Positions 1 to 15,223 of a stretch of DNA of 60,217 nt are shown one piece after another. The stretch is taken from the NCBI RefSeq assembly GCF_000426705.1, contig NZ_KE384559.1, positions 1 to 60,217 of the forward strand, in the 5' to 3' direction. Every line of letters begins with the position of its first letter. Position 1 is the first letter of the stretch. The notes beneath the pieces are model-generated. The model made no database searches and was not told where the DNA came from. It saw only the letters and a list, made by a program, of their open reading frames with translations. A program made the position numbers and the translations under genes. Source of the stretch: Spirochaeta cellobiosiphila DSM 17781. Lineage in GTDB: Bacteria > Spirochaetota > Spirochaetia > DSM-17781.

Positions 1-424
1 TCCCTTCATCATCTGTTTGATAGAGGTATTTTAGGTTCTGCTCATCAATGGTGCTTAGCAAAGATCCTAATTCAGGCCCATTTAGATTAAGAAAAAACTG
101 TTTTGACAAATACTTTATAAGACGTTCTTCAACTATCTCATTTAGATTTTGCTCAAGCGCGTTCTTTTCTCCCTCAATATCAAGGTCTTCCCCTTGAACT
201 ACTGTTAATTCCTGTTCCCATTTTGCGACAACCGCTTCAACTCCATACTCGGCTAAGCGAAACCAATCATCTTGTGTCTGTTGTTGATCGGCTTTGTCCA
301 AATACACTTCTAATAAAGAGGAGTCATAGTTTTGTGAAAGGTCATATTGGCTTTGTCCATATATTGAGTTTACACTTATGATTAACAGGATTATAAATAG
401 GAGAATTGAACTTTTCTTTTTCAT
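1..424 (-). CDS. secreted protein of unknown function, N-terminal part only
   Basis: The minus-strand frame is open from an ATG at 424 to the window edge (about 141 codons), so the 3' end lies outside the window. The N-terminus is a clear signal peptide: MKKKSS followed by a run of Ile, Leu and Val and a small-residue region ending near SVNSIYGQ, so the product should be exported to the periplasm or outer membrane. The rest of the visible part is hydrophilic and acidic (for example KWEQELTVVQGEDLDIEGEK) and looks helical. I do not recognise the family. It is transcribed divergently from the export operon that begins at 739, with an AT-rich gap between. Confidence is for a real gene, not for a function. 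Confidence 0.75.
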   Translation of the reverse strand, partial: MKKKSSILLFIILLIISVNSIYGQSQYDLSQNYDSSLLEVYLDKADQQQTQDDWFRLAEYGVEAVVAKWEQELTVVQGEDLDIEGEKNALEQNLNEIVEERLIKYLSKQFFLNLNGPELGSLLSTIDEQNLKYLYQTDDEG

Positions 425-738
425 TTGTTGCCCTTTTTACAAATCAATTTATATTGTTATATAATTAGTTACCATAATAAACTTAATCCAAAGACTCAAT
501 CAAGAGATATAATTGCACGATCTTAAAAAACATTATGTATTCCCACAAAAAGAAATACTATCCACAATAGACTATTGACAATTCATATTATGTGTATGCT
601 AAATTAAGTAGCTTTTATTTATGTAAACTAAATTATTTAATTATGAATTAATAATCTGAGCACAACTAAATTCCTTACTAATTATTCTATAGCATTGTTG
701 CTGAGGTTTTGTTTATAAAAAAAGGGAGTCATATTAAA
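425..738. other. AT-rich intergenic region between divergent transcription units
   Basis: About 314 bp with no credible gene, very AT-rich, separating the minus-strand secreted protein from the export operon. It must hold promoters for both directions. A good -35 hexamer TTGACA lies at 575-580 on the plus strand, but the best -10 behind it (TAAATT at 600-605) is 19 bp away, so the match is only fair. No RNA family, tRNA or convincing operator was recognised. Confidence 0.5.
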
Positions 739-1419
739 ATGATCTCAAAAAAAAAATGGATATTCATACTAGCAATTAGTTCACTTGTATTTATAGTCTT
801 GGGAACAATCCTGTTATTATCTTCTCCTCAAGTAAAACAAGAAGATATAAGTCATTACTTTGAAGCAAAGAAAAGCTATACGATAGGTGATTTATCAGGT
901 TCTATTAAAACGTTGGAAGTACTTAATAAAAAAAGCCCCCATTTCTATCAAGCAAAGTTTCTTTTGGGCAAATGTTACTATATGACAGACCAGTATGAGA
1001 AATCAGAAAAAATTTTAACCAAACTAATGAAGGATAATCCTTCCTATTTGGAAGCAGGAGTTTGGTTATCTAGAACTTATATCCAATTAAATCAGATTGA
1101 TGAGGCTCAAAAGGAAGCAGAGAACCTATTATCATATAATTCCGATGACCCTAGACTTCTAGGTCTGATGGGGAATATTCTAGAGAAAAAAGGAGATCTG
1201 CATAAAGCCATCGATTATTATCAAAGAGCCACATTGTATGAAGAAGAATTAGCTAAAAACAGATTATATCTTAGTCAGATATATTCACGACTAGGTGTTT
1301 ATGATAAATCCTTATCAGAGTTAAAAAAAGCGAAGTCATTACTTGAGAATGATAGTCCCTTAAATAAACCAATAAAAGTTCTTCAAAATAAATTAACTTC
1401 AGTTCTGGAGAGTGAATAG
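739..1419 (+). CDS. membrane-anchored TPR protein, first gene of RND export operon
   Basis: A 226-residue protein with an N-terminal membrane anchor (residues about 6-29, WIFILAISSLVFIVLGTILL) followed by helical repeats that fit tetratricopeptide repeats, e.g. the segment with LGKCYYMTDQYEKSEKIL and the later GDLHKAIDYYQRAT. The anchor has no clear cleavage site, so the TPR part is probably periplasmic and tethered to the inner membrane. I start it at the ATG at 739, because AAAGGGAG at 721-728 lies 10 bases upstream; a start at 709 would put that site inside the gene. It is the first gene of a tightly spaced operon with TolC, adaptor and RND genes, so a scaffold role for the pump is an inference. 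Confidence 0.75.
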   Translation: MISKKKWIFILAISSLVFIVLGTILLLSSPQVKQEDISHYFEAKKSYTIGDLSGSIKTLEVLNKKSPHFYQAKFLLGKCYYMTDQYEKSEKILTKLMKDNPSYLEAGVWLSRTYIQLNQIDEAQKEAENLLSYNSDDPRLLGLMGNILEKKGDLHKAIDYYQRATLYEEELAKNRLYLSQIYSRLGVYDKSLSELKKAKSLLENDSPLNKPIKVLQNKLTSVLESE

Positions 1420-1420
1420 A

Positions 1421-1918
1421 ATGGTAAAAATTATAAGAAGTATAATATTATTATTAGTTACATCATCTGCTTTTACCGGTTGTATGTTTTTTTTACCAAA
1501 TGTAAGTATTAGTAGTTATTATCCCAAACAACTGGACAATTCAATCAGACTAGGAACTATTCTTATTGAACCTAGCCATACACAAACAGAGGTAATGAAA
1601 GATCTACCCGATGTTATAAAATCTGTAGCAAGTCAGAATGAATTAACTGTAAATTCTGAAGTTATATCTGATTTAGTTATGAATGTGTCCCTATATCGGA
1701 AACCTTATTATAAGAAATTCAAGCAATATGAATCTGTAACAGTGATTGTAGATATCGTAAAAGATTCTACTGAAGTGGCTAGTGTCATATATACTGACGA
1801 TATAACCACACCACTTGAATCCTTTTCACAAATATATCGAATTTTTGACATACTCATGAAAGAACTCAATAATGAATTTCTGAGAATACAAAAAGAAATA
1901 GAAAAAGGTAAAATATAA
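1421..1918 (+). CDS. small predicted lipoprotein in RND export operon
   Basis: Product of about 165 residues. The N-terminus MVKIIRSIILLLVTSSAFTGC has a lipobox-like AFTGC, so it is a predicted lipoprotein. The mature part is about 145 residues of mixed beta and alpha character and I recognise no family, although the size and position suggest a periplasmic or outer-membrane accessory component. The start at 1421 is chosen because GGAG at 1407-1410 is 10 bases upstream; a GTG at 1412 is too close to that site. It follows the TPR gene by one base and precedes the TolC-like gene by one base, so co-translation is likely. Confidence 0.65.
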   Translation: MVKIIRSIILLLVTSSAFTGCMFFLPNVSISSYYPKQLDNSIRLGTILIEPSHTQTEVMKDLPDVIKSVASQNELTVNSEVISDLVMNVSLYRKPYYKKFKQYESVTVIVDIVKDSTEVASVIYTDDITTPLESFSQIYRIFDILMKELNNEFLRIQKEIEKGKI

Positions 1919-1919
1919 A

Positions 1920-3293
1920 ATGAAAAGGCCCATAGGGCTTGTATGTCTCATATTCATATCGGTTAGTCTTTTCCCTCTAGAAGTTACACTGGATGAATCT
2001 GAGGCAATGGCTCTCAATAACTCACAAGAACTAAAGAATCAGCAAAGTTCAATGGAGATCTCCCATTTTTCATATCAATTGGGTATTAGAAATTTTTTCC
2101 CACAATTCTCATTTACCTATAGTAATAGTAGACAGACTCGGTACAACTCAACGGATTCTGACAGTATTCAACTAGGCGTAAACATAGATCAACCAATCTT
2201 TGATGGAGGAAGAACCCTAATCCAACGTGAATTAACAGGGATTCAGCTAAATTTACAATCAGCCAATTTAGAAAAGCAAAGAGATTCCATTAGAAATAGT
2301 GTATGGCAGCTATACCATCAGGTATATATAACACGACAAAAGTTAGACTTACAAAGAGAGTTATATAAAATTAGTGAAGAACAACTTGATATAACACAAA
2401 AAAAATATGATATCGGTAGTATTACAGAAATTGATCTCGTTGAATCTAAAATTGAAGTACAAAGCCTAGAGATAGATATTGTAGCAACAGAAAACCAATA
2501 TCATAGTTTACTATCCCAACTGAATAGCCTATTAGGTCTACCAGTAGAAACGGAATTGGTTTTATTTTCATCAATTGATACTGAATATACAGGGATATCT
2601 CTTAGTATTGATGATAAAGACTATTACTACAATATTGCATTATCCCGGAATTTAGATATCAAAAGTGCACGAGTCGAAACCACCCAAGCAAAAGCACAAT
2701 ATGATATAGCTACACGATCCCTAATTCCTACAATTTCACTAGAAGGTGGTGTGAATTTCTCCGGAGAACAATTCCCCTTACAAACTCCTTCCTATAATGC
2801 AAAATTAAATATTCAATTTCCATTTAAAGCCGTTCCTGTTACTACTAGTGTAGCTTTTAGTTCAACCCCAAAGGTCGAATATTCTTCAAGTAATAGTTAC
2901 TCAGTAACGCCATTAAGCGATATGAGCTTTTTAGTTGATAAGAAATCAGCAGCTATTCAACTTACCTCATCAATGCAAAAGGAACAGGATACTCAAAATA
3001 ACCTTATTTTTAATATTGAAGAACAGTTAAAGGACCTTAAACAAAAAAGGTCATCCATAATTCTGAATAGAAAAGCTTTATCCTTACAAAAACAAAAACA
3101 GGATATTTTGGCTGTAAAATATAAACTTGGTGAAGTTAAAGAGCTTGATTTACTTAAAAGTAATATTGATTACTATAATCAAGAGATTGCAATATGGCAA
3201 AGCATACTAGAACTTATCTTAAGTGAAAGGGCTTTTGAGCAATTGTTGGGCTTAGGATTAGGAGAATTATCAAATTTGGGAGTTCAAAAATGA
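1920..3293 (+). CDS. TolC-family outer-membrane efflux channel
   Basis: A 457-residue protein with a signal peptide (MKRPIGLVCLIFISVSLFPLE) and the repeated long-helix organisation of the outer membrane efflux protein (OEP) family. The first half opens with LDESEAMALNNSQELK, typical of the first OEP repeat, and contains the IDQPIFDGGR strand seen in TolC barrels; helices such as ITQKKYDIGSITEIDLVES carry the usual periplasmic coiled-coil pattern. The second half repeats it, with KYKLGEVKELDLLKS. Length is normal for the family. It would form the trimeric outer-membrane duct for the pump encoded downstream. Its stop codon overlaps the ATG of the adaptor gene (ATGA at 3290). Confidence 0.9.
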   Translation: MKRPIGLVCLIFISVSLFPLEVTLDESEAMALNNSQELKNQQSSMEISHFSYQLGIRNFFPQFSFTYSNSRQTRYNSTDSDSIQLGVNIDQPIFDGGRTLIQRELTGIQLNLQSANLEKQRDSIRNSVWQLYHQVYITRQKLDLQRELYKISEEQLDITQKKYDIGSITEIDLVESKIEVQSLEIDIVATENQYHSLLSQLNSLLGLPVETELVLFSSIDTEYTGISLSIDDKDYYYNIALSRNLDIKSARVETTQAKAQYDIATRSLIPTISLEGGVNFSGEQFPLQTPSYNAKLNIQFPFKAVPVTTSVAFSSTPKVEYSSSNSYSVTPLSDMSFLVDKKSAAIQLTSSMQKEQDTQNNLIFNIEEQLKDLKQKRSSIILNRKALSLQKQKQDILAVKYKLGEVKELDLLKSNIDYYNQEIAIWQSILELILSERAFEQLLGLGLGELSNLGVQK

Positions 3294-4633
3294 AAAAAAA
3301 ATGCTTGTATTTTTTTTCTCTCTTAATGTATATATCTTGTTCTGACGCAAATGAAAAAATACCCGATGCCAATACTGTTGTAAAAACTCAGGTCAGTACA
3401 ATTAAGACAGTAGAAAAAGAAATCATTCCTACATTAACCTCTTTTGGCAGTATATCCTTTCGTTCAAAAGCAGATATTACTTCAACAGTAGATGGAACAT
3501 TAACAAAAATCCTTGTTGAAGAAGGAGATGTGGTGAAAAAAGGTCAGCTCCTTGCCACATTATCTAATATTCAACTTAAAATCAGAAAAGACCAAGCCCA
3601 ATCTTCTCTTGAATCAGCAAAATCAGCAGTAGAACTCGCAGAGACGAAGCTCTATGAAGGTAAATTACAAATAGAATCCCGTTTAGTAAGCTTGGAAAAA
3701 TCTCAACTACAGCTCAAGCAAAAGGAAAGAGAGTTCGAGCAAATAGGGAAAAATCTAGCTAATCAAAAAGAACTATTCGCTATTGGGGGAGCAACAGAAG
3801 AAGATATTATCTCATTAGAGCTGAGTTATAGCGCTTCAGAAACTGAACTACTAGGACTTAGAAAGGACTTATCCATACAAATGGTTGGTCTTAGAGATGA
3901 AGACATTCTTAATTATGGGTATTCAGTTCCAGAGGATCAGGATACACGTATTGAAATTCTTAAGGACATTAATACACGTACCTTACTAGCAGAACTTAAT
4001 GTATCTAAATCCCAACTTAATACAGCAAAAACAGAACTACAGTCTGCAATAGAATTAATGCAAGAACTTAATTTGAAAGCTCCAATTGACGGTATTGTCG
4101 GCGCAAAATATTTGGAGTTGGGAGAAAGAGTCAAGGCAGATACAAAGGTATTTACAGTATTCGATTCTACAATGGTTGACATATCTTTTCCAGTACCAGA
4201 AAACAAAGGAATTTTACTAACAAAAGGATTAAAGGTAGAAGCAGTTGTTGATGCACTTGATAACTCGAAATATGAAGCATCTATAAGACAAATATCACCT
4301 ATGATAGATCCCCAGTCCGGTAATATTACGATAAAAGCTTCCCTGTCGAATAGAGAGGGACTCTTCAAACCTGGCATGTTTTCGAGAGTCAAAGTTGAGT
4401 ATGGAAATAAAAGAAAAGCTATCCTCGTTCCTGAATCATCTATTGTACAAAAAAAAGAAAATAATGCTGTGATCTTTTTGACAGTTAATAATCATGTTTT
4501 TAAGAAACAAGTTGTTTTAGGTGAAGAGTTTAATGGGAATATAGAAATTATTGATGGTATAAAGAAAGGAGATCTGATAATTGATAATCCCTCTCCCCTA
4601 TTAAGGGAAGGAGAAGAAGTTGAAATCAATTAA
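3290..4633 (+). CDS. RND efflux periplasmic adaptor (membrane fusion protein), lipoprotein
   Basis: A 447-residue HlyD/AcrA-type adaptor. The N-terminus has a short hydrophobic stretch ending in YISC, a lipobox-like site, so it is probably lipid-anchored. The biotinyl-lipoyl half-motif VEEGDVVKKGQLLATL (about residues 76-91) and its partner LKAPIDGIVGAKYLELGERV (about 261-280) flank a long coiled-coil hairpin, and the C-terminal beta-barrel contains ISPMIDPQSGNITIKASL and LFKPGMFSRV, standard for the family. It would bridge the RND pump and the TolC channel. It overlaps TolC by four bases and the next gene by 14. Confidence 0.92.
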   Translation: MKKKCLYFFSLLMYISCSDANEKIPDANTVVKTQVSTIKTVEKEIIPTLTSFGSISFRSKADITSTVDGTLTKILVEEGDVVKKGQLLATLSNIQLKIRKDQAQSSLESAKSAVELAETKLYEGKLQIESRLVSLEKSQLQLKQKEREFEQIGKNLANQKELFAIGGATEEDIISLELSYSASETELLGLRKDLSIQMVGLRDEDILNYGYSVPEDQDTRIEILKDINTRTLLAELNVSKSQLNTAKTELQSAIELMQELNLKAPIDGIVGAKYLELGERVKADTKVFTVFDSTMVDISFPVPENKGILLTKGLKVEAVVDALDNSKYEASIRQISPMIDPQSGNITIKASLSNREGLFKPGMFSRVKVEYGNKRKAILVPESSIVQKKENNAVIFLTVNNHVFKKQVVLGEEFNGNIEIIDGIKKGDLIIDNPSPLLREGEEVEIN

Positions 4634-6107
4634 TTATCTATTGTTCTTCTCTTTTCTTATTTTACAATCCTGTAATATAATTGATCTAACAGAATTAAAT
4701 GTATCTTATTATCCTTCGGAAAGAGATCAGATTATTAAGGAAGATAGTACTCTATGGGTATCTTTTTCAGAAGAAGTTAACAAGGATGACGCAGAAGAAT
4801 TATTACAACTTGTGGGACCAAACGGTATCATTGAAGGTGATTTTTATTGGACAAACACTAAACTCAATTTCAAACCTTATCAAAGTTTAATTACTGGATA
4901 TAGATACAATTTTAAGTATCAAGGGGAACTAGAGACCTCTTCAGGCCTTAATTTTTCTGTTAATTCCGATATTCCATTCTATGCAGGGACAAATGAATCA
5001 TTACCTGTTTTAATAGACTATTCCCCTTTTTCCGGTGCAATAACTAACGTTTATGAACCAATAAAATTTAAGTTTAGTAAAGCAATGAACACTAAATTGT
5101 TTGAAGAATATTTTTCTGTAAACCCATCTTCTGAATTAGACTTTTCATGGGATGATGATAAGACAACAGTAACTATTAGTCCCAATAAAAAATGGACAAA
5201 TTTAAGTTTACTTGAATGGAAACTTCCAACAAAAATTACAGATTCTACTGGGGAACCATTACCAATAGAATATAGTGATAATTTCTTAATCCAGTTAGAT
5301 ACAACCTCTCCAGAACTTATGTATATAGTGCCATCAATACTCAACACGACGGGACAATATTCTGCACTAACCAATTTATCACTTGAAGATGTTGAGAATA
5401 GTAATGATATTTATATTGAGTTTGATGAGGGCATAGATTTTTCTAGTCTCTCATCTGCTTTTTCTATAACCCCCGATATGGATGGACATATTAAACAACT
5501 TTCGAATTCCAAGTTTGTCTACATTAAAGGGAATGATTTTGAGCCAGACAAAGAATATTCAATTACAATAGAAAAAGGTATGACAGATTTATCTGGCAAC
5601 AAAATACCTGCAGATCTAAACTTTACTTTTAAACCTAATATACCTCCCATCGTTATAGAGGATATAAGTATTATTTACAAAGGTGGGAATATATCTATAT
5701 CTGATGCACAATTCAATTCAACAAAATTAATCCAGATGCCAGCATCTTTTACATATTTTGGGTCAAACGAAAAAGACTATGCGTTGCAATTCGTTATAAC
5801 TATTAACACTAGCTATTTAGAAGAGGAAATCTTAGCAAAACAAAACCTTATACAAACAATAGGCTGCGAGTTAACATTTCCTCAAAGTCAGAGTTATTCA
5901 TCTCCATATCTTTACAATAGTAATTGGAATGCATCTGGGAACAGTATAACTCTAGAGTTTAGAGGTTTTGCTATCGCTACTAATGATGAGCCTATTTACT
6001 ATAAATTTAATATGGCAAGCGGAAGTAGTTCATCTGCAAATAAATCAGGTTCTTATCTTTTAGATGACGTGTACTTTTATTTCAATGCACAGGGAATGAA
6101 CCCATGA
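4620..6107 (+). CDS. lipoprotein with bacterial Ig-like (Big_5/SbsA-type) domains
   Basis: A 495-residue predicted lipoprotein (LFFSFLILQSCN lipobox) with about three tandem Ig-like units, near residues 25-110, 120-215 and 230-330. They show the Big_5 pattern: a 'P..G.....Y..I.F.FSKAMN' strand (PFSGAITNVYEPIKFKFSKA), a 'WDDDKTTVTISPN' strand and 'ITDSTGEPL' or 'MTDLSGNKIP' turns. The C-terminal 150 residues are unlike these and unrecognised. The start is a TTG at 4620, preceded six bases earlier by AGGAG, and lies inside the adaptor gene. Big_5 domains are usually found in surface or periplasmic proteins; their presence between adaptor and pump genes is unusual. Role in export is inferred from position only. 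Confidence 0.8.
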   Translation: MKSINYLLFFSFLILQSCNIIDLTELNVSYYPSERDQIIKEDSTLWVSFSEEVNKDDAEELLQLVGPNGIIEGDFYWTNTKLNFKPYQSLITGYRYNFKYQGELETSSGLNFSVNSDIPFYAGTNESLPVLIDYSPFSGAITNVYEPIKFKFSKAMNTKLFEEYFSVNPSSELDFSWDDDKTTVTISPNKKWTNLSLLEWKLPTKITDSTGEPLPIEYSDNFLIQLDTTSPELMYIVPSILNTTGQYSALTNLSLEDVENSNDIYIEFDEGIDFSSLSSAFSITPDMDGHIKQLSNSKFVYIKGNDFEPDKEYSITIEKGMTDLSGNKIPADLNFTFKPNIPPIVIEDISIIYKGGNISISDAQFNSTKLIQMPASFTYFGSNEKDYALQFVITINTSYLEEEILAKQNLIQTIGCELTFPQSQSYSSPYLYNSNWNASGNSITLEFRGFAIATNDEPIYYKFNMASGSSSSANKSGSYLLDDVYFYFNAQGMNP

Positions 6108-7675
6108 GAAAAATGATAGTCCCTATTATAGCTATCTGCTTTGTTTCTATTATGTCATGTGATCTTTTTAACATGATGAACTCTGAATACTTGGAAGTAA
6201 CCGATTGGTCTCCTAAGCAAACTAGTATTACTGATAATTCTAACATTGATATATATGTAGGTTTTTCAAAAGCACCAAAGAAAACTATAACAGAAGAAGC
6301 GTTTTCACTAACTTATGATGGAATAGAAGTTCCAGGAAGAAAGATTTGGAAAGATGATAAGACACTAAGGTACAACTTATATCATCCTTTAGAGGATGGA
6401 AGAGATTATATTTTGAAGGTATCTACAAATGCAGAGGATAAGGACGGGAATTCATTAAAACAGGACTTCTCTTTTAGGTTTAGTACAAAAATTTCACAAA
6501 ATAGACCTAAAGTGTTAGGAATAAATCCGAGTCCATTTTCAACTGTTAATGATTCATTATCTCCGATAACAATAAGCTTTGACAAAAGTATGAATTATAC
6601 AAGTGTGATAGACAGTTTTAGTATATCACCCAGTGTAAGCGGGTATTTTACTTGGGATAAAAACCAACAAATTTTCACCTTTAACCCAAAGGAAGAATAT
6701 AAATATCAAGAAGAATATACTGTGACTTTAGCCTCTTCTTTGGAAGATAAAGATAAATGGAATATCGGTTATGATTTTACATCATCATTCAATGTTGGGA
6801 TTGACACTATTTATCCTCAGATAAGTGCGGTATCGGATTCAACTAACTCTTTCTTTATGCGGCTAGAGAATGAAGAGGATGACGAATTTACAGTTACAAG
6901 AGATTGGGAAGTAAATCGGGACATATATATTCAATTCACAAAGTCAATGGATCGGAACAAAACCAAAAATTCTTTAGTAATAGAGCCACAGACCGCGTAT
7001 GATATCACTTGGGATCATAATACCAATGGCGATGTCATGATAATAGAATGGAAAGAGCCTTTAAAGTATGGAACTATTTACACTATGAGAATAACAAATT
7101 CTGCCCTTGATATTTACAATAATAGTCTAGTCAAAACAGCTGTTTATAATTTTGAATCTAATGGTCATTCTTCTATACCTCCAGAACTGATAAAACTGGT
7201 TTATATCAAAGAACCGATGACTAATCCTTTTAGAGAAGAAGTACTTTACAATAAAAATACCCCTTCAGAGAATAAAGTTGATTTTATATTCAGTAATAAA
7301 GATGAGATTAATGATGGTTCACCATTAAAAGTCTGTTTTGATTTTTATTTTTCCTTAGCAGATGATGCATACATTAATTTGTTCTCTTTTATGGAAAATT
7401 TTGCAGTATTACCACAAGATAGCGCATTAACATTTACACCAACTAAAGTAATTGCACAAACAGATACTACAGTACCAGATTTTGGAGGAAGTATATCACC
7501 TATACTCACAGACTCAAATGGTACTTATATAATTGCTAGGGTTTATGGCAATATTGATGATTCGGATATTGATGTTGGGATGGTTGACTTCAAGGTGTAT
7601 AAAGATTTTGAAGATACACTTGGTAATAAAATGTCTGAAGATTGGTACTGGCAGGTGTTTGACAAAGATGAATAG
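6104..7675 (+). CDS. second lipoprotein with bacterial Ig-like (Big_5/SbsA-type) domains
   Basis: A 523-residue protein, a diverged relative of the preceding gene. The signal region IIAICFVSIMSCDLF carries a lipobox. Repeated Ig-like units are seen at about residues 30-125, 140-235 and 250-345, with strands such as PSPFSTVNDSLSPITISFDK and 'FTWDKNQQIFTFNPKEEYKY', and turns like 'NAEDKDGNSLK' and 'SALDIYNNSL'. The C-terminal 170 residues are not recognisable. The start overlaps the previous stop (ATGA at 6104), and the next RND gene starts inside its last eight bases. Probably arose by duplication of its neighbour; both are anchored in the envelope and are likely accessory parts of the pump (inference). 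Confidence 0.78.
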   Translation: MRKMIVPIIAICFVSIMSCDLFNMMNSEYLEVTDWSPKQTSITDNSNIDIYVGFSKAPKKTITEEAFSLTYDGIEVPGRKIWKDDKTLRYNLYHPLEDGRDYILKVSTNAEDKDGNSLKQDFSFRFSTKISQNRPKVLGINPSPFSTVNDSLSPITISFDKSMNYTSVIDSFSISPSVSGYFTWDKNQQIFTFNPKEEYKYQEEYTVTLASSLEDKDKWNIGYDFTSSFNVGIDTIYPQISAVSDSTNSFFMRLENEEDDEFTVTRDWEVNRDIYIQFTKSMDRNKTKNSLVIEPQTAYDITWDHNTNGDVMIIEWKEPLKYGTIYTMRITNSALDIYNNSLVKTAVYNFESNGHSSIPPELIKLVYIKEPMTNPFREEVLYNKNTPSENKVDFIFSNKDEINDGSPLKVCFDFYFSLADDAYINLFSFMENFAVLPQDSALTFTPTKVIAQTDTTVPDFGGSISPILTDSNGTYIIARVYGNIDDSDIDVGMVDFKVYKDFEDTLGNKMSEDWYWQVFDKDE

Positions 7676-10640
7676 TTTAATCACATTAAGCATAAAAAGA
7701 CCAATAGCAACTATAATGTTTTTTCTAGCAATATTTATCTTGAGTCTTTGGGCTATGAACCAAATGTCAATTGATTTTTTGCCAGAAATTGAAGTCCCCA
7801 AATTAACCGTAGTTACAAGTTACGGAGGTCTTCCAGCAAAAGAAGTAAGAGAATTAATTACAATACCATTAGAAGATTCTTTTTCTTCCTTAAAGGGAAT
7901 CAAACATATTAATTCAATTTCACGTGATGGATTAACAATTATAGAGCTTGAGTTCCATTGGGGTACAGATATGGTTCTGGCTGGTGTTGAGACAAGGGAA
8001 GTTATTGATTTGGCCTATTTGACCTTACCTGATGATGCCTCAAAACCACAAGTACTTCCTGTTGATCCCAATGATAGGCCTGTAATCTCTATTGGTATTT
8101 TCCCCAAAGATGGGGATTTAGCATTAGCACGAAGAATCGCTGAGAGAGAAATCAAAACAAGATTACAAAAAAGTACTGGAGTTGGAACAATACAAATATC
8201 TGGTGGATTAATTGAACAAATTCATATATCGATTGATCAAGATTTTTTAATGGCAAAAGGCTTAACACTAACGGATATATCACAGGCATTAGCCTCTACG
8301 AATATTAGTTATCCTGCAGGTGTGATCAATGAGGGAGCAATTGAGTATATAGTAAAAACTGATGGTAAAGCAAAAACTATTAATGATATTAAAAACTACT
8401 ATATACAATCTCAAAATGATTCAAATCCAATACAAATCAAAGAACTTGGTTCTGTAAAAACAGCATATGATGAACAACATTCTGTTTTTATGAGTGACTA
8501 TTCAGAGGGAGTTTTACTATCTATAAGAAAACAATCTGGAACAAGTCCTATTGTAATGTCAAAATCGGTCAGAACGGAGTTAGAAAACTTAAAACGATCA
8601 TACGGAAATATATTAGAATTTAATATTATTGAAGATACCTCTCTGCTCGTAAAAGAATCAATAACAAATTTGGTATATTCCGCTGTTGTTGGAGCATTAT
8701 TTGCCTTTATAATTTTATTACTCTTTTTAAGAAACTTACCTAATAGTCTATTATTAATTATTAGCTTACCTATTTCTATATCATGGGCAATTTTTCTATT
8801 AGCAATGACTGGTCGTGGTTTAAATATAATGAGTTTAGGCGGACTCGCCATGGGTATTGGTATGTTAGTTGATAATGCTATTGTAGTAATGGAAAGATTA
8901 TCAGATCTTGAGAACAAAAACACGGACAATATTATATATTCAACAACATCCTTAGCAAATTCTTTGGTTGGGTCAACAATAACAAGTCTGGTAGTATTTA
9001 TTCCTGTGTTATTTTTACCTGGGGTCTTAGGTACTTTGTTTTCAGATTTAGCCTTCTCTGTAATATTTTCATTAAGTGCCTCTTTAGTTGTCGCAATAAC
9101 CTTAATTCCTGTCCTATTTAAATTGTGGGGTAAAACTGGAGCCCCTACAAAGAGAAATTCAACAAAGTCATATGTTTGGCAAAAAATATTTAAGATATCT
9201 TTTCGAAAACCCATATTTACCATAGTTTTCGTAATAATATTATTCATCAGTGGAGGTATCTTATCCACAACGCTACCTATTGAGTTTTTACCAAGTCTGA
9301 ATTCAGGTACTGCATCTGTAAAATTAGAAATGCCACCTGGTACATCCATCGATTATATGAAAGATATTGGCAAGGATTTCATGAGGCAAGTTAAGAATAT
9401 CGATTATATTACTAGTTTTAGTTTTGAAATTGGCGGGGAAACAAACGATCCATATTACTTATCCAATAAGGAAGCAAGTACAGAGATAATAACTGGAGTC
9501 ATTACTTATAACAAGAATAAGACTACTTTTAAAAAAATACGTGACTCTATCACACAAAGTATTTTATTAAACCAAGGCAAATTACTGATCTCTGAGCCTA
9601 CAGATCTTTTATCATCTATCATAGGAATTGATTCAGGACGTGAAATTTGGTTAGCAACAGGTGAATCACCAGAAGAAGCCCGAAAAAAAGCAGAGAATTA
9701 CATATTAAAACATAAAAATTGGCAAATATTACCTGCAGATAAAAAAACACGAATAACATTATACCCAGATAGAGAATTATTGGCTAAAAATAATTTAAGT
9801 GTATCTACCCTATCACAGTTTATTGGTGCTTCATTATTTGGATCTATACAATCATCATTCTATTCAGAAGGAAGAGATGTTGATATCAAAGTACAATTAG
9901 ATGAAAAGAATAGAGATTCAATACAGAAATTAAGAAATTTTAGCATATTTAATCAAGAGGGAATTAGATATAAATTAGAAGACCTAATTCAACTCAAAGA
10001 AGAAAATAGCCTGCCTTATCTGACGAGGTTTGATAGACAAGATGTTTCAGAAATTTTGTTTGCTGAAAAAACGACTAAAGAGCAAAAGGAATCTTTATAT
10101 AATCTAAATTTTATTTCTGCTGGACAATCACTTATAAATGAAAATATATCAACTATTATTTTAGTGTTTTCTATATCATTACTACTTTTATATCTAACAT
10201 TAGGAGCCCAATTTGAATCGTTTATTCTACCAATTATTTTATTACTAACCTTGCCTCTTGGTTTTACAGGGATTGCCTTTAGTCTATTTATAGGTAGAGC
10301 CAGTATAAATCTAAACTCAATTTTAGGTATATTAGTACTCATGGGAATTAGTGTTAATAATTCAATATTATTATATGAAACATTTATAGCACGATTCAAA
10401 GAAAGCAATAATATTTTGCAATCAATTTATATTGGTACAAAATCAAGAATTAGACCAATAATGATGACTATGCTAACAACAACTCTTGCATTATTACCAA
10501 TGGTCATAGACCCAGCAGGAACAAATACCCAAAGTTCAATGGCATTAGCAATAATTGGAGGACTCTTAATATCTACGTTATTAAGTTTAATCGTGATACC
10601 ACAGGTATTTTATAGATATGAAAATAGAAAAAATTCTTAA
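7668..10640 (+). CDS. RND-family efflux pump inner-membrane subunit 1
   Basis: A 990-residue RND transporter of the AcrB/MdtB type. It starts with the typical 'SLITLSIKRPIATIMFFLAI' first membrane helix, followed by a periplasmic porter domain, TM helices 2-6, a second helix near 'FRKPIFTIVFVIILFISGGI' and a second porter domain with helices 8-12. The TM4 motif GMLVDNAIVVMERL (near residue 400) keeps the acidic residue needed for proton coupling, and TM10 has GISVNNSILLYETF. Start is at 7668 rather than 7533, because only the later ATG gives the family N-terminus; it overlaps the preceding gene by eight bases. Length is a little short of AcrB (1049). Confidence 0.93.
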   Translation: MNSLITLSIKRPIATIMFFLAIFILSLWAMNQMSIDFLPEIEVPKLTVVTSYGGLPAKEVRELITIPLEDSFSSLKGIKHINSISRDGLTIIELEFHWGTDMVLAGVETREVIDLAYLTLPDDASKPQVLPVDPNDRPVISIGIFPKDGDLALARRIAEREIKTRLQKSTGVGTIQISGGLIEQIHISIDQDFLMAKGLTLTDISQALASTNISYPAGVINEGAIEYIVKTDGKAKTINDIKNYYIQSQNDSNPIQIKELGSVKTAYDEQHSVFMSDYSEGVLLSIRKQSGTSPIVMSKSVRTELENLKRSYGNILEFNIIEDTSLLVKESITNLVYSAVVGALFAFIILLLFLRNLPNSLLLIISLPISISWAIFLLAMTGRGLNIMSLGGLAMGIGMLVDNAIVVMERLSDLENKNTDNIIYSTTSLANSLVGSTITSLVVFIPVLFLPGVLGTLFSDLAFSVIFSLSASLVVAITLIPVLFKLWGKTGAPTKRNSTKSYVWQKIFKISFRKPIFTIVFVIILFISGGILSTTLPIEFLPSLNSGTASVKLEMPPGTSIDYMKDIGKDFMRQVKNIDYITSFSFEIGGETNDPYYLSNKEASTEIITGVITYNKNKTTFKKIRDSITQSILLNQGKLLISEPTDLLSSIIGIDSGREIWLATGESPEEARKKAENYILKHKNWQILPADKKTRITLYPDRELLAKNNLSVSTLSQFIGASLFGSIQSSFYSEGRDVDIKVQLDEKNRDSIQKLRNFSIFNQEGIRYKLEDLIQLKEENSLPYLTRFDRQDVSEILFAEKTTKEQKESLYNLNFISAGQSLINENISTIILVFSISLLLLYLTLGAQFESFILPIILLLTLPLGFTGIAFSLFIGRASINLNSILGILVLMGISVNNSILLYETFIARFKESNNILQSIYIGTKSRIRPIMMTMLTTTLALLPMVIDPAGTNTQSSMALAIIGGLLISTLLSLIVIPQVFYRYENRKNS

Positions 10641-13533
10641 CAGTTGGTATGATAAACCTGTAACCCCTAAACTATTCTTTATCTCTATCTTATTTTTTGG
10701 GATTATTGGTTTAATTTATACAGAGCTTGGTGGGCAACAACCATCTGTACAAAAGTCCTTTTCCATTATAACTCAACACTATGGAATAAACAGTGAAGAG
10801 ATTGAACGAACTATTACGATACCACTAGAAGATACAATCGGATCAATTACTGGAATTGAATCTCTCAAATCTTCCAGTGAATTCTCAAAATCTAGAATAG
10901 ATATAATACTCAGGGAAGAGATCGATTCTACCAACTTTTATCTTGAATTAAGGGATCGAGTTGATAGAGTTTATGCGAACATGCCTTCTTCTGTACAAAA
11001 ACCAAGAATTGTCACCAGTAATTCAAATCAAAGATCTTCATTTATAATTAGTTTTGAATCAGAGATAATGGAACCTACACAGCTGAGACAGTATGTTGAA
11101 CACAATATAAAGCCAGCTTTTGAGAAAATACCAGGTGTAGGTGAGATTGAAATTGGTGGAGGAGCTCAAAAAGAAATCCATATTCTAGTAAATGAAGAGA
11201 AAATTACATCTTCAAACTATAGTCCTGATCAAATAGCTTCTTTTATACAAGAACAAAATATCTATACTCCACTTGGCAACATTAAAACTAATAAAAATAA
11301 TATACCTGTTAGTATTGATGGAAGATTTAAAAATATTTCTGATTTTAAGAAGCTTATTCTTAATCAACAAGGAAGTACTATAAACTTAGATGAAATATCA
11401 AATGTCACTTTTGGTTATAGAAATCCTGAGAGTATAAGTAGGGTTCAGGGATCAAAAAAAATCACACTATACATTAAAACCGGTGGTGAAGCTAACATAG
11501 TGTCTTTATCAAAAAAAATTAACTCAGAAGTGGTAAAATGGAACAATAAAGGGCTCCAGACCAACTTGATATACGATCAGGGTGAAAAAATGTTTGAAGC
11601 AATAAAACAGGTTATACTTTCCATTTTTATAGGAATGTTAATTGTTAGTTTATTTATTTTCATTTTCACAGGGGATTTCTTAAAATCTTTATTATTGGCT
11701 TTAACACTGCCTATTACAGGACTAATAACTATTGGAATATTCAGTATTTTTGGATACTCGATAGACAACTATATTCTAGCAGGAATAGCTATAGCCTTAG
11801 GGATTATTATTGATACTGGTATCATCATTACAGAATCAAATTTCGTAAAATCAATCCCGGCTCTTTTATCCTCTACACTAACATCGATAATTGTTTTATT
11901 TCCTCTTATATATTTACGTGATTCAATACTAGGTGTAGCCAATATCAGTTTAGCCCTATTAGTAATGATCATAACCTCTTTATTAATGAATATACTATTT
12001 ATGCCTTACTTTTATAGAAACAAAAGCAAAACCATTTTTAACTTAAAATCTATATCAAAGTTAAAGTTTTATATAATGAAGGCGTGTAGTTTCTCTTATA
12101 AAAATAGCAAATTAGTATTAATATTAACGACATTTCTTTTAGGAATAGCCATATTTATTATGATTGATAATGGTACACAATTTGAAAACATATTAAAAGA
12201 ACCAATTGTCTTTGCACATATTGAAATGGAAAGCGGTACTAATTTAAAGACTGTAGATAAAAGAGTAAATGACTATATAGAAATATTAAAAAAACACCCA
12301 TATATTACACAGATTGAGTCAATATCGAGACGAGATAATGCACAACTAACAATCAAATATAATGAAAAGAAGATAGCTGAAAGCGACCTCATTAAATGGA
12401 TCAAAGATACTTCCAACTCTATTCCTGAAGGCAGCTTGTTTATCCCCGAAAATAATAATAAAAAATTGATCAATCTTGAAATTACATTAACAGGTGAAGA
12501 CAATTTAGAATTAAGACGTGTAGCCAAAGAGACTTTAAATAATCTAATAAAACAAGATTGGGTAACTGAAGGAGTATTGCATTTCAAAGAGGCTCCGCCT
12601 AGTTATGTATTTGATATTGATAACAATCAGTTTCCTATTACTGGTATTTCTACTAGTGACATATCCAATAGAATAAGATGGGATTTACAAGGGCCCGTTG
12701 CTGATAAATGGTTAGATAAAAATGACGAAATAGATGTTCGCATTATGGGAAACAATTATACAGATAGAACAATAACGGAAATAAAGGAATTACCATTTTT
12801 AAATAAAAAAGATTCAGGAGTTCCTTTACGTACAGAGCAATTAGGAACTTTTAATGAAGATATAGAACCTTCTAGAATTTATCGAAACAATAGACAAAGA
12901 AGTGTTAGTTTTTCAATTTCTATTAAAAAAATGAACATAGAAAAAATAGAAAACTTAATCTGGAACGTTTTAAACAGTCAGCAACTAAAACCAGGTTATG
13001 CATTCAAACTTAGCGATACCATATATAAACAACGGAAACAAATGTATAAGCTTTGGGTATTGCTAGGACTAGCTCTTTTTCTAATCTATGCTGTTTTAGC
13101 TAGTGAAGCAGAATCTTTTATTTCACCGCTTGTTATTATTTCTTTTATACCCATATCACTAGCTTTTCCTATTACTGCCTTGAAGCTCATATCACAACCA
13201 ATAACTACTTCGGTAATGATTGGTTTCATTGTATTAACAGGTATGGCAGTAAACAATGCTATCTTGATTATTGATCAGTATAAATCTAATTATTCTAAAA
13301 CCAATCTCAAAGATGATCTTATATTTGCAATATCTGTAAGATTGAAACCACTTTTACTCACTTCGGGTACAACAATACTAGGATCTTTACCACTACTATT
13401 TAATAATCCAGGAGACTTTTCATTTTTAAATGCACTTTCTTTTGTCATGCTTTTTGGTGTATTAGGATCTCTTTTCACATCACTTGTTTTTCTACCGGCA
13501 ATCACTCGATATTTTCCTAAATCTCTTAATTAG
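10618..13533 (+). CDS. RND-family efflux pump subunit 2, divergent TM4
   Basis: A 971-residue RND protein overlapping the end of subunit 1 by 23 bases. The overall architecture is the same (first helix 'LFFISILFFGIIGLIYTELG', porter motif 'YGINSEEIERTITIPLEDTI', last helices 'IGFIVLTGMAVNNAILIIDQ' and 'LPLLFNN'). However TM4 reads IALGIIIDTGIIITES instead of the usual VDNAIVVxE: the Asp is kept but the following Asn and Ala are Thr and Gly. The C-terminal half is otherwise normal. Two RND genes side by side suggest a heteromeric pump such as MdtBC, in which the two subunits are not equivalent; this is inference. Substrate unknown. Its stop overlaps the convergent lipoprotein gene by eight bases. 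Confidence 0.9.
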   Translation: MKIEKILNSWYDKPVTPKLFFISILFFGIIGLIYTELGGQQPSVQKSFSIITQHYGINSEEIERTITIPLEDTIGSITGIESLKSSSEFSKSRIDIILREEIDSTNFYLELRDRVDRVYANMPSSVQKPRIVTSNSNQRSSFIISFESEIMEPTQLRQYVEHNIKPAFEKIPGVGEIEIGGGAQKEIHILVNEEKITSSNYSPDQIASFIQEQNIYTPLGNIKTNKNNIPVSIDGRFKNISDFKKLILNQQGSTINLDEISNVTFGYRNPESISRVQGSKKITLYIKTGGEANIVSLSKKINSEVVKWNNKGLQTNLIYDQGEKMFEAIKQVILSIFIGMLIVSLFIFIFTGDFLKSLLLALTLPITGLITIGIFSIFGYSIDNYILAGIAIALGIIIDTGIIITESNFVKSIPALLSSTLTSIIVLFPLIYLRDSILGVANISLALLVMIITSLLMNILFMPYFYRNKSKTIFNLKSISKLKFYIMKACSFSYKNSKLVLILTTFLLGIAIFIMIDNGTQFENILKEPIVFAHIEMESGTNLKTVDKRVNDYIEILKKHPYITQIESISRRDNAQLTIKYNEKKIAESDLIKWIKDTSNSIPEGSLFIPENNNKKLINLEITLTGEDNLELRRVAKETLNNLIKQDWVTEGVLHFKEAPPSYVFDIDNNQFPITGISTSDISNRIRWDLQGPVADKWLDKNDEIDVRIMGNNYTDRTITEIKELPFLNKKDSGVPLRTEQLGTFNEDIEPSRIYRNNRQRSVSFSISIKKMNIEKIENLIWNVLNSQQLKPGYAFKLSDTIYKQRKQMYKLWVLLGLALFLIYAVLASEAESFISPLVIISFIPISLAFPITALKLISQPITTSVMIGFIVLTGMAVNNAILIIDQYKSNYSKTNLKDDLIFAISVRLKPLLLTSGTTILGSLPLLFNNPGDFSFLNALSFVMLFGVLGSLFTSLVFLPAITRYFPKSLN

Positions 13534-14896
13534 CAGCTAATATTTCTTCTAACCTAGTTTTTAGTATTCCTGTTGATTCATCTTTAACAAGCTCTAAATA
13601 TTTTTTCACTTTAATATCACTCTTTTGAAGCAATTTTAACTTCTCAATCGCTTCTTGTGTAGAATACACTTTAGGTAAATTAAGAAAATGTACCAAGGGT
13701 CTAAGAATCTCTACATTCTGATTACCTATATAATTTGATAGGATGGACTGTACTTCTTGAGGAACCAACATGTACGTGGCAAACTCTTCAGAGACTCCAT
13801 TGTTTTTAGCTATAGATTCTCTATATTTGTTAGCTGTATTAGTTTCTGAATATAATATTCCAAGTTCATAGAATCTTAAAGGTATGTCTTGATTTAAAGA
13901 AGTTCCCATATCAATCAAGTTCTTCCAAAAGATAGGATGGTTGTAATAATATGGGATTAAATTAATAAATTTATTATAATCGGAAAGGTTAAACTGATTG
14001 ATTTGATTCAAACTTATTAATTCTATAAAATCTGTAACTAGATTATCAGGAACTTTCTTGATAATGGATATTACTTCATTGTACTTCTTATTTTTGTAGA
14101 ATGTTAAAAGATCAACAACTTCATCTGGAGAGCCTTCAATTGTTTTTAACTTGCTAATATAGGCCTCCATAGACTGTTCATCGATATACTGTAAGGATAA
14201 TTGATAATCCATATCGATATAACTATAAAGAAGTGATTGAGTAGCGTTACCATTTAATCCAGATATCAATGAAAGCTTTAATCCTAAACTGGGTTGATAC
14301 CCATTCCTCTTCCAATAATCTAACCACAATTTATAAGCATAATTTGTTTCTTCTTGATTGATAGCTAATTCAGATAGAAAATTCCAATCATCATATTTCA
14401 TAAGATTCACGTTATTATTGTACACATGCTTCATTCTTTCAAAAGCTTCAGCATTCTTGTTAAATTTTACCAGAGATCTTGCAATTATAATGTTAACACC
14501 TGCAGAATCATTTTTATCATTATCCAAAGCCTTCCGACCGAAATCTATAGTATTTGTGTAATTATTCTTTCTATATTCAAGTGAAGATAAACCTGCATAT
14601 AACTTATACGTCCATACACTATCGGAATCAATCAATTCTTTCTCAGCGGCCGATAGAGATTCTTCTGCTTCGGCCAGTTTTGAATCTAATAGATACCTTA
14701 AGCCCAAGTCAGTATTAATATAGAAACTATTTGGATTTTTTTCTTTCATTTTCAATAAATAATTAAAATATTCCTGTTTAGAACTTTGGGAATATTCATC
14801 TTGTAATTTCTGTTTAATTACATTTTCATTGCTACAAGAATTCAAAATAATGGTAATAATCAATATTTTTAACACAATCTTTTTCATATCTTTCAT
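13526..14896 (-). CDS. TPR-like lipoprotein, convergent with export operon
   Basis: A 456-residue protein with a lipobox (IIITIILNSCSN), followed by a mature domain of helical hairpins that look like TPR or TPR-like repeats, e.g. 'LLDSKLAEAEESLSAAEKEL', 'NNYTNTIDFGRKALDNDKND' and 'KFNKNAEAFERMKHVY'. Spirochaetes carry several such outer-membrane-anchored TPR lipoproteins, but I cannot name this one. The start at 14896 is uncertain: an ATG three codons in (14887) would also work and neither has a clear Shine-Dalgarno site. The last eight bases overlap the end of RND subunit 2 on the other strand, and the gene shares the high AT content of the export operon. Confidence 0.72.
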   Translation of the reverse strand: MKDMKKIVLKILIITIILNSCSNENVIKQKLQDEYSQSSKQEYFNYLLKMKEKNPNSFYINTDLGLRYLLDSKLAEAEESLSAAEKELIDSDSVWTYKLYAGLSSLEYRKNNYTNTIDFGRKALDNDKNDSAGVNIIIARSLVKFNKNAEAFERMKHVYNNNVNLMKYDDWNFLSELAINQEETNYAYKLWLDYWKRNGYQPSLGLKLSLISGLNGNATQSLLYSYIDMDYQLSLQYIDEQSMEAYISKLKTIEGSPDEVVDLLTFYKNKKYNEVISIIKKVPDNLVTDFIELISLNQINQFNLSDYNKFINLIPYYYNHPIFWKNLIDMGTSLNQDIPLRFYELGILYSETNTANKYRESIAKNNGVSEEFATYMLVPQEVQSILSNYIGNQNVEILRPLVHFLNLPKVYSTQEAIEKLKLLQKSDIKVKKYLELVKDESTGILKTRLEEILAAN

Positions 14897-14928
14897 TATA
14901 CATCATATTTAAACCTTGTCCTACCTGT

Positions 14929-15126
14929 TTATTTACCCTTCAAATGCTTCGGAATCATCCGATTCCGGGCGACCTTAAAGGCGAACTTCATTATCTTCTC
15001 AGTAGAAACGTCAGGACCATGTTTCTTTTTCATAATAAGAACAATGGCTTCCAAGGCATCCTTGCTCAAAGTAAGATAAATAAACCTATCCCTCTCTTCT
15101 GGTGTCATATCTTCCCATTCTACCAT
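14929..15126 (-). CDS. small conserved-looking cytosolic protein, 65 aa, unknown
   Basis: A 65-residue protein with an exceptionally good start: AGGAGG sits seven bases before the ATG at 15126, so this is very likely a real gene. The sequence is charged and helical, begins MVEWEDMTPEERDRFIYLTL and ends in a basic tail (ARNRMIPKHLKGK). There is no signal peptide or membrane segment. I do not recognise the family. It is transcribed away from the mechanosensitive channel gene, with an 88-97 bp spacer that carries a 13-bp palindrome. Confidence 0.7.
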   Translation of the reverse strand: MVEWEDMTPEERDRFIYLTLSKDALEAIVLIMKKKHGPDVSTEKIMKFAFKVARNRMIPKHLKGK

Positions 15127-15167
15127 GAAAACCTCCTATATTTTGTGTATAAAGGGTTAGCTTTTAC

Positions 15168-15180
15168 TACTATGATAGTA
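15168..15180. promoter_or_regulatory. 13-bp palindrome, possible operator
   Basis: TACTATgATAGTA is a perfect 6-1-6 palindrome located between the divergent 65-aa gene and the MscS-type gene. It could be an operator controlling either direction. No regulator is known for it, and palindromes of this size occur by chance in AT-rich DNA. Confidence 0.3.
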
Positions 15181-15223
15181 TAAATTATTCTTTACGAATC
15201 GTCAGAACAAAAGGATGAATAGC

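What the first reader, a model, noticed from the sequence alone, without database searches (positions are those of the whole stretch)
739..13533. RND export operon with TPR protein and two Big_5 lipoproteins inside it
Seen: eight plus-strand genes with gaps of one base or overlaps, i.e. TPR anchor, small lipoprotein, TolC, adaptor, two Ig-like lipoproteins, two RND subunits. Known: tripartite pumps need only TolC, adaptor and RND. Inference: the extra envelope proteins may form an extended pump or export a specific lipid or protein, giving a distinct, perhaps undescribed type of machine.
Basis: partly seen in the sequence, partly recalled or inferred. Interest (0 to 1): 0.7.

Follow-up and report, generated by a model that had tools for sequence, protein, structure and literature searches.

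The report
Spirochaete toxin-export operon with RND pump
This gene cluster, found across many spirochaetes, combines a pump that spans both membranes with extra envelope lipoproteins, and it is linked to giant secreted proteins whose swappable wall-cutting tips look like weapons against other bacteria, so it may be an undescribed toxin-secretion machine.

Summary
Eight tightly coupled genes encode a TPR protein, a lipoprotein, TolC, an adaptor, two Ig-like (Big_5) lipoproteins and two RND subunits. It is not a local oddity. The tandem Ig pair occurs across Spirochaetota, and nearly always sits with TolC, adaptor and RND genes (64 paired loci: adaptor in 60, TolC 56, RND1 55). Relatives of that protein are about 2,650-3,700 aa. 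They look like polymorphic toxins: conserved for about 2,600 aa, then an abruptly variable C-terminal ~370 aa. One third of 33 tips match peptidoglycan peptidases. Most are followed by a small exported protein (probable immunity), and there are arrays of orphan tip plus immunity modules. One species' tip is 97% identical to an orphan module in another. Of 74 genomes with the giant, 72 have the Ig profile. Ten of 11 checked genomes have no secretin and ten no two-partner transporter. Best explanation: a dedicated proton-driven RND-TolC apparatus that exports giant antibacterial polymorphic toxins. Linkage is shown; export is inferred. I found no published description.

The parts
2..424 (-). N-terminal 141 aa of a giant secreted protein (signal peptide), cut by the contig end; candidate cargo, a polymorphic toxin
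   Evidence: Similar to giants beside the cassette in other species (BLASTP 42%, 4e-26; profile hit 5.6e-46). An almost identical 370-bp start (window 439 to 70) lies at the end of contig C27 of the same genome
739..1419 (+). TPR protein with one N-terminal membrane anchor
   Evidence: Pfam TPR_19 7e-19; found in 40 of 64 paired loci
1421..1918 (+). Small lipoprotein; predicted fold like PelC, CsgG and TraT, outer-membrane ring lipoproteins
   Evidence: AlphaFold pLDDT 79; PelC 5t0z Foldseek E 2.4e-6, VIA Z 12.6, rmsd 3.4 over 132 residues; found in 29 of 64 loci
1920..3293 (+). TolC-type outer-membrane factor
   Evidence: Pfam OEP 6e-46
3290..4633 (+). Periplasmic adaptor (membrane fusion) lipoprotein with a family motif IGFRDxDI
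   Evidence: NCBIfam RND_mfp, 213.5 bits against a cut-off of 94.9; alignment
4620..6107 (+). Ig-like (Big_5) lipoprotein A, TTG start
   Evidence: Pfam Big_5 6e-20; tandem with B in 64 loci
6104..7675 (+). Ig-like (Big_5) lipoprotein B; predicted as a string of four Ig-like domains
   Evidence: Pfam Big_5 2e-30; invariant lipid cysteine C19; model pLDDT 82
7668..10640 (+). RND permease 1
   Evidence: Pfam ACR_tran 4e-168; TM4 aspartate in 52 of 52 homologues and a cassette-specific clade with support 1.0
10618..13533 (+). RND permease 2
   Evidence: Pfam ACR_tran 4e-120; TM4 aspartate in 45 of 48 homologues
13526..14896 (-). TPR-like lipoprotein, convergent here but directly upstream of the TPR gene in many relatives
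   Evidence: Homologues in about 20 cassette loci

Best explanation
The operon encodes a dedicated export apparatus for giant, cell-wall-attacking polymorphic toxins used against other bacteria. Proposed order of events: (1) the giant (about 300-400 kDa) is taken to the periplasm by Sec through its signal peptide; (2) the adaptor joins a proton-driven RND pair in the inner membrane to TolC in the outer membrane; (3) the TPR protein, the PelC-like ring lipoprotein and the two elongated Ig lipoproteins capture, unfold or guide the giant, or hold it at the surface, while the pump drives it out; (4) on or near a neighbouring cell the variable C-terminal tip (M23 or M15 peptidase, probable L,D-transpeptidase-like and others) attacks peptidoglycan; (5) kin are protected by the small exported protein encoded right after the giant. 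Shown by sequence: the conserved gene set, its linkage to the giants, and the tip, immunity-like and orphan-module architecture. Inferred: that this apparatus moves the giant, the order of steps, and the antibacterial action.
For: Conserved set: Ig profile in 130 of 393 Spirochaetota genomes, 80 of 168 genera; neighbourhoods. Giant beside it. 72 of 74 giant-bearing genomes have the Ig profile, Fisher p 8e-40; within one genus all 14 giant-bearing genomes lie among the 15 Ig-bearing of 20, p 4e-4. By the coordinates the two are within about 16 kb in at least 36 genomes, and still co-occur when far apart (G025, G358, G226). Toxin architecture: in the closest pair 75-99% identity over about 2,600 aa then 13-37%, sharp border about 110 aa after an invariant HEAxRxG motif; 34 pre-tip ORFs, with 26 of 29 following genes scored as signal peptide or lipobox; 10 of 33 tips Peptidase_M23 (best 1e-16), one M15_4 3e-12; tip swap 96.8% identical with partner gene 91%; tandem orphan array. 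Other routes: no secretin in 10 of 11, no TPS barrel in 10 of 11.
Against: No RND pump is known to me to move a protein of this size; AcrB-type pumps export small molecules. Seven genomes have the pre-tip module without the Ig profile, and 21 have a strong Ig match without the giant N-terminus (some have a shorter giant, others are fragmented MAGs). One cassette (L126) carries the giant but no adjacent RND genes. In some genomes the giant lies far from the cassette. Genomes are related by descent, so the Fisher p-values are overstated. PorV-family matches below the cut-off occur in all 11 genomes, so a type IX-like route is not formally excluded.
Confidence: 0.6

Rival explanations
1. The giants are polymorphic toxins, but the RND-TolC-Ig cassette does another job in the same weapon system, for example exporting a lipid, small molecule or surface anchor, or protecting the envelope. 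The giant crosses the outer membrane by an unidentified route.
For: RND pumps normally move small molecules. Seven genomes carry pre-tip modules without the Ig profile. In G025, G358 and G226 giant and cassette are unlinked (coordinates).
Against: 72 of 74 co-occurrence. Genes are adjacent in many families. No secretin in 10 of 11 and no TPS barrel in 10 of 11 giant-bearing genomes. The cassette is a complete inner-to-outer membrane conduit.
Confidence: 0.22
2. The giants are not weapons but secreted or periplasm-spanning wall-remodelling proteins, with the cassette as their assembly factor, used for the cell's own morphogenesis or surface layer. The variable tips are alternative wall enzymes.
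For: The tips recognised with confidence are peptidoglycan enzymes, which could serve the cell itself.
Against: Abrupt tip divergence between close species, tip and partner exchanged as a unit, arrays of orphan tip-partner modules, and absence from some genomes of the same genus. These mark polymorphic toxins rather than housekeeping enzymes.
Confidence: 0.1
3. An ordinary multidrug RND efflux pump of the MdtABC kind with accessory lipoproteins; linkage to the giants reflects a shared mobile island.
For: TolC, adaptor and RND families are all standard. Two RND genes in a row occur in MdtBC. The operon region is AT-richer than the rest of the window.
Against: The Ig pair is kept across classes of the phylum, with its own RND1 clade. 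Co-occurrence persists when genes are unlinked. Tripartite efflux needs no Ig, TPR or PelC-like parts.
Confidence: 0.08

Closest known systems
Tripartite RND efflux pumps (AcrAB-TolC; two-permease form MdtABC-TolC)
   Same: RND permeases, periplasmic adaptor and TolC. The TM4 aspartate matching the first of AcrB's pair is kept.
   Different: Two Ig lipoproteins, a PelC-like lipoprotein, a TPR protein and a giant secreted protein are conserved with it. The second TM4 aspartate and the TM10 lysine are replaced, though the same genome's ordinary RND paralogues share this.
Polymorphic toxin systems (CdiA, Rhs, MafB)
   Same: Long conserved N-terminal part, exchangeable C-terminal tip, next-door immunity-like gene, orphan tip-immunity cassettes (compare PMC3482391, PMC3150448).
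   Different: No CdiB-type transporter beside it and no known trafficking domain matched by Pfam. The linked export genes are RND-TolC-Ig. 'RND' and 'TolC' do not occur in the held text of PMC3482391.
Type I secretion (ABC-HlyD-TolC), e.g. giant RTX adhesins (from general knowledge)
   Same: Adaptor plus TolC linked to a giant exported protein.
   Different: RND permeases instead of an ABC transporter in the cassette; cargo has an N-terminal signal peptide, implying a periplasmic intermediate.
Pel exopolysaccharide exporter (PelC ring lipoprotein)
   Same: The small lipoprotein is predicted to share the PelC fold, and both systems have TPR parts.
   Different: About 7-11% sequence identity; the same fold is shared with CsgG, TraT, LptE and PqiC; no PelB barrel or sugar synthase in the locus.

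Membership tests
Tripartite RND pump | TolC/OEP outer-membrane factor | tested here: met
   Pfam OEP 6e-46
Tripartite RND pump | RND-type periplasmic adaptor | tested here: met
   RND_mfp over its cut-off
Tripartite RND pump | RND permease with proton-relay aspartate in TM4 | tested here: met
   ACR_tran; D in 52/52 RND1 and 45/48 RND2; AcrB's second D and K are not kept
Tripartite RND pump | Exports drugs or other small molecules | not testable with these tools
   Needs transport assays
Polymorphic toxin system | Conserved N-terminal part with abruptly variable C-terminal domain | tested here: met
   Window identity profiles between congeneric species
Polymorphic toxin system | Recognised potentially toxic domain at the C-terminus | tested here: met
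   M23 in 10 of 33 and M15_4 in 1 of 33; toxicity itself not tested
Polymorphic toxin system | Cognate immunity gene immediately downstream | tested here: inconclusive
   Position and export signals fit (26 of 29) and partner travels with tip; neutralisation not tested
Polymorphic toxin system | Orphan tip-immunity modules | tested here: met
   L204, L163, L175 and the window's own genome
Polymorphic toxin system | The window's own giant has a variable toxic tip | not tested
   Only 141 codons lie in the window; tip modules lie on other contigs of the genome and were not joined to it
CDI / two-partner secretion | TpsB (ShlB/CdiB) outer-membrane barrel | tested here: not met
   None in 10 of 11 giant-bearing genomes; one weak unlinked hit in the window's own genome, C1, E 2e-6
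Type II secretion | Secretin | tested here: not met
   None in 10 of 11 giant-bearing genomes, the window's own included; present in G198
Type I secretion | ABC transporter encoded with adaptor/TolC | tested here: not met
   The energising genes in the window cassette are RND; ABC transporters elsewhere in the genomes were not searched
Type IX secretion | PorV-type shuttle and SprA translocon | tested here: inconclusive
   PorV-family matches only below the cut-off in 11 of 11; SprA not searched

The most novel reading that the evidence does not exclude
A previously undescribed secretion system of Spirochaetota in which a proton-driven RND-adaptor-TolC conduit, with Ig, TPR and PelC-like lipoproteins, exports 300-400 kDa polymorphic toxins that attack the peptidoglycan of rival bacteria. 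It would be, to my knowledge, the first RND machine shown to secrete proteins across the outer membrane.
Probability: 0.5. Interest if true: 0.95.

Novelty: new variant of a known kind. Interest (0 to 1): 0.85.

Why it matters
How spirochaetes secrete large proteins across their outer membrane is poorly understood. A phylum-wide machine tied to giant toxins would explain how they compete with other bacteria in their habitats. It would extend RND pumps from small-molecule efflux to protein secretion, and add a delivery route to the known list for polymorphic toxins. The tips and their partner genes offer a ready test bed of new wall-degrading enzymes and inhibitors.

Tried and rejected
Outside the phylum the cassette was sampled only in the phylum of one 'Planctomycetota' MAG: 1 of 149 genomes has it, so horizontal transfer or mis-binning is likely; other phyla were not sampled. 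The replaced TM10 lysine looked special but the genome's ordinary RND paralogues share it, so it was dropped. Anti-phage defence: no PADLOC match. No PDB relative by sequence for the giant's N-terminal or pre-tip domain. Pfam and NCBIfam on whole giants gave nothing useful. The Ig model matches generic Ig domains of L,D-transpeptidases and CopC, judged uninformative. Literature searches found no description of this system; the library is open-access only.

Full report
WHAT IS THERE. The window (first 60 kb of contig C29, 212 kb, of a 3.95-Mb genome) holds eight co-directional genes at 739-13533 with junctions of +1, +1, -4, -14, -4, -8 and -23 bases. Pfam and NCBIfam identify a TPR protein, TolC (OEP), an RND-type adaptor over its NCBIfam cut-off, two Big_5 lipoproteins and two ACR_tran permeases. 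The 165-aa lipoprotein has no family match. In the whole genome Big_5 passes its cut-off only in these two proteins. Three further RND proteins of this kind lie elsewhere.

THE CASSETTE IS CONSERVED. A single-protein search with IgB found relatives in 29 of 98 genomes of the class. A 22-sequence profile found them in 130 of 393 genomes of the phylum and 80 of 168 genera. Neighbourhoods show the same genes in the same order, TPR-LPP-TolC-adaptor-IgA-IgB-RND1-RND2, in many families, with regular rearrangements: TPR-IgA-IgB-TolC-adaptor-RND1-RND2 in one genus, and adaptor-RND1-RND2-IgA-IgB in other classes. Of 64 loci with a tandem Ig pair, many of them cut by contig ends, 60 have the adaptor, 56 TolC, 55 RND1, 49 RND2, 40 TPR and 29 LPP. 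The loci that have no RND, TolC or adaptor genes had weak, single Big_5 matches. Cassette RND1 proteins form one clade with support 1.0 that excludes the three paralogues of the same genome. Named carriers include Spirochaetales and Spirochaetes MAGs and Candidatus Thalassospirochaeta sargassi. In the phylum of one MAG labelled Planctomycetota, 1 of 149 genomes carries it.

TWO MISSED PARTS. Clustering the flanking genes showed two more conserved families. One is the window gene 13526-14896, a TPR-like lipoprotein present near about 20 cassettes. The other is a giant secreted protein. The window's 2-424 (minus) is its first 141 residues, cut by the contig end (42% identity to the giant of L032, 4e-26). 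Full-length relatives are about 2,650-3,700 aa, with signal peptides and no Pfam domain over most of their length. They are encoded either divergently upstream of the cassette, as in the window, or just downstream of RND2.

THE GIANTS LOOK LIKE POLYMORPHIC TOXINS. (a) In four species of one genus the giants are 75-99% (closest pair) or mostly 45-85% (other pairs) identical over about 2,600 aa and then fall to 12-39%. The border is sharp, about 110 aa after an invariant HEAxRxG motif. (b) Among 34 distinct ORFs with this pre-tip domain the untruncated tips run 347-494 aa past the motif; 29 have a following gene at -96 to +46 bases, and 26 of these score as signal peptide or lipobox by a crude rule. 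(c) Of 33 tips, 10 match Peptidase_M23 (best 1.4e-16), one Peptidase_M15_4 (2.9e-12) and one YkuD weakly (0.026). Others show short SxGC-like motifs by eye, which is only suggestive. (d) The tip of the G198 giant is 96.8% identical over 345 aa to an orphan tip in G230, whose own giant has an unrelated tip; the partner genes are 91% identical; orphan partners occur in G288 and G304. (e) G274 carries a tandem array of tip-partner modules behind its giant (L204). (f) The window's own genome has a second giant start nearly identical over 370 bp and at least four tip modules on other contigs, each followed by a protein that looks exported.

GIANT AND CASSETTE GO TOGETHER. The giant N-terminal profile hits 74 of 393 genomes; 72 also have the Ig profile, Fisher p 8e-40, or 71 of 74 at a stricter Ig threshold, p 7e-55. 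These p-values ignore shared ancestry. Within one genus (g60) all 14 giant-bearing genomes are among the 15 Ig-bearing ones of 20 listed, p 4e-4. By the coordinates at least 36 genomes have both within about 16 kb, while in G025, G358 and G226 they are hundreds of kb or more apart yet still co-occur. Exceptions: the pre-tip profile hits 48 genomes, seven without the Ig profile; 21 strongly Ig-positive genomes lack the giant N-terminus, of which G011, G055 and G083 have shorter proteins of about 1,500-1,900 aa with the pre-tip domain.

HOW IT PROBABLY WORKS. The giants carry Sec-type signal peptides, so they need a route from periplasm to outside. Ten of 11 giant-bearing genomes have no secretin and ten have no two-partner barrel (the controls ring for secretin, but none of the 14 controls rings for ShlB, so that negative is less well calibrated). 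The cassette is a full conduit: RND pair, adaptor, TolC. RND1 keeps the TM4 aspartate in 52 of 52 homologues and RND2 in 45 of 48, consistent with proton drive. The small lipoprotein's AlphaFold model (pLDDT 79) matches PelC, an outer-membrane ring lipoprotein (Foldseek 2.4e-6; VIA Z 12.6, rmsd 3.4 over 132 residues), then CsgG, TraT, LptE and PqiC. The low-identity fold match shows kinship of fold, not function. IgB is predicted as a string of four Ig-like domains. I therefore favour Sec export followed by RND-TolC-driven export of the giant, with the lipoproteins capturing, guiding or displaying it. Only the linkage and the toxin architecture are shown; export is inference.

COMPARISON AND NOVELTY. 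As a pump it meets the sequence criteria of tripartite RND systems, with extra parts. As a weapon it meets most criteria of polymorphic toxin systems except a tested immunity function, and the window's own giant is only partly readable. It does not meet the tested criteria for CDI, type II or type I secretion; type IX is inconclusive. The main survey of polymorphic toxin trafficking (PMC3482391) mentions neither RND nor TolC in its held text. No paper on this system was found. I rate it a new variant of a known kind, with a real chance that it is a categorically new secretion machine.

LIMITS. Gene calls are mechanical ORFs; genomes are a sample and many are fragmented MAGs; most carry no names here; family annotations are predictions; the signal-peptide rule is crude; only single chains could be folded.

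Noticed in passing
window 1-16000 versus 16000-60217: The operon region is 30-34% G+C while most of the rest of the window is 36-42%, hinting at a different history for the cassette.
   Followed up: no
L126 and L116 (genome G251): G251 has two cassettes: L126 carries TPR-TolC-adaptor-IgA-IgB followed directly by the giant with no RND genes, L116 has the RND pair but no giant in the stretch read. The RND pair may be shared.
   Followed up: partly
L049, L051, L052 (genomes G011, G055, G083): In this family RND2 is very divergent and a conserved ~775-aa protein of unknown type follows the cassette; the giants there seem shorter (about 1,500-1,900 aa).
   Followed up: no
L142 (MAG labelled Planctomycetota): Core of the cassette plus a complete 3078-aa giant in a genome otherwise outside the phylum; horizontal transfer or mis-binned contig.
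   Followed up: partly
L205, L206 (G047) and L207 (G026): Arrays of pre-tip/tip-immunity modules in genomes with no Ig cassette match; the N-terminal carrier is unknown there.
   Followed up: partly
Partner genes after tips: L156:10215-11498, L161:10508-11491, L163:2265-3230, L174:9300-10265, L197:8911-10077: Several candidate immunity proteins share a C-terminal stretch with GxGxGE...VVLNGFVD..R..LYK.N.R.K; looks like a recurring family.
   Followed up: no
G000:C1:245854-246333: Weak ShlB-type match (2e-6) in a 451-aa frame, the only such hit among 11 genomes; nature not examined.
   Followed up: no
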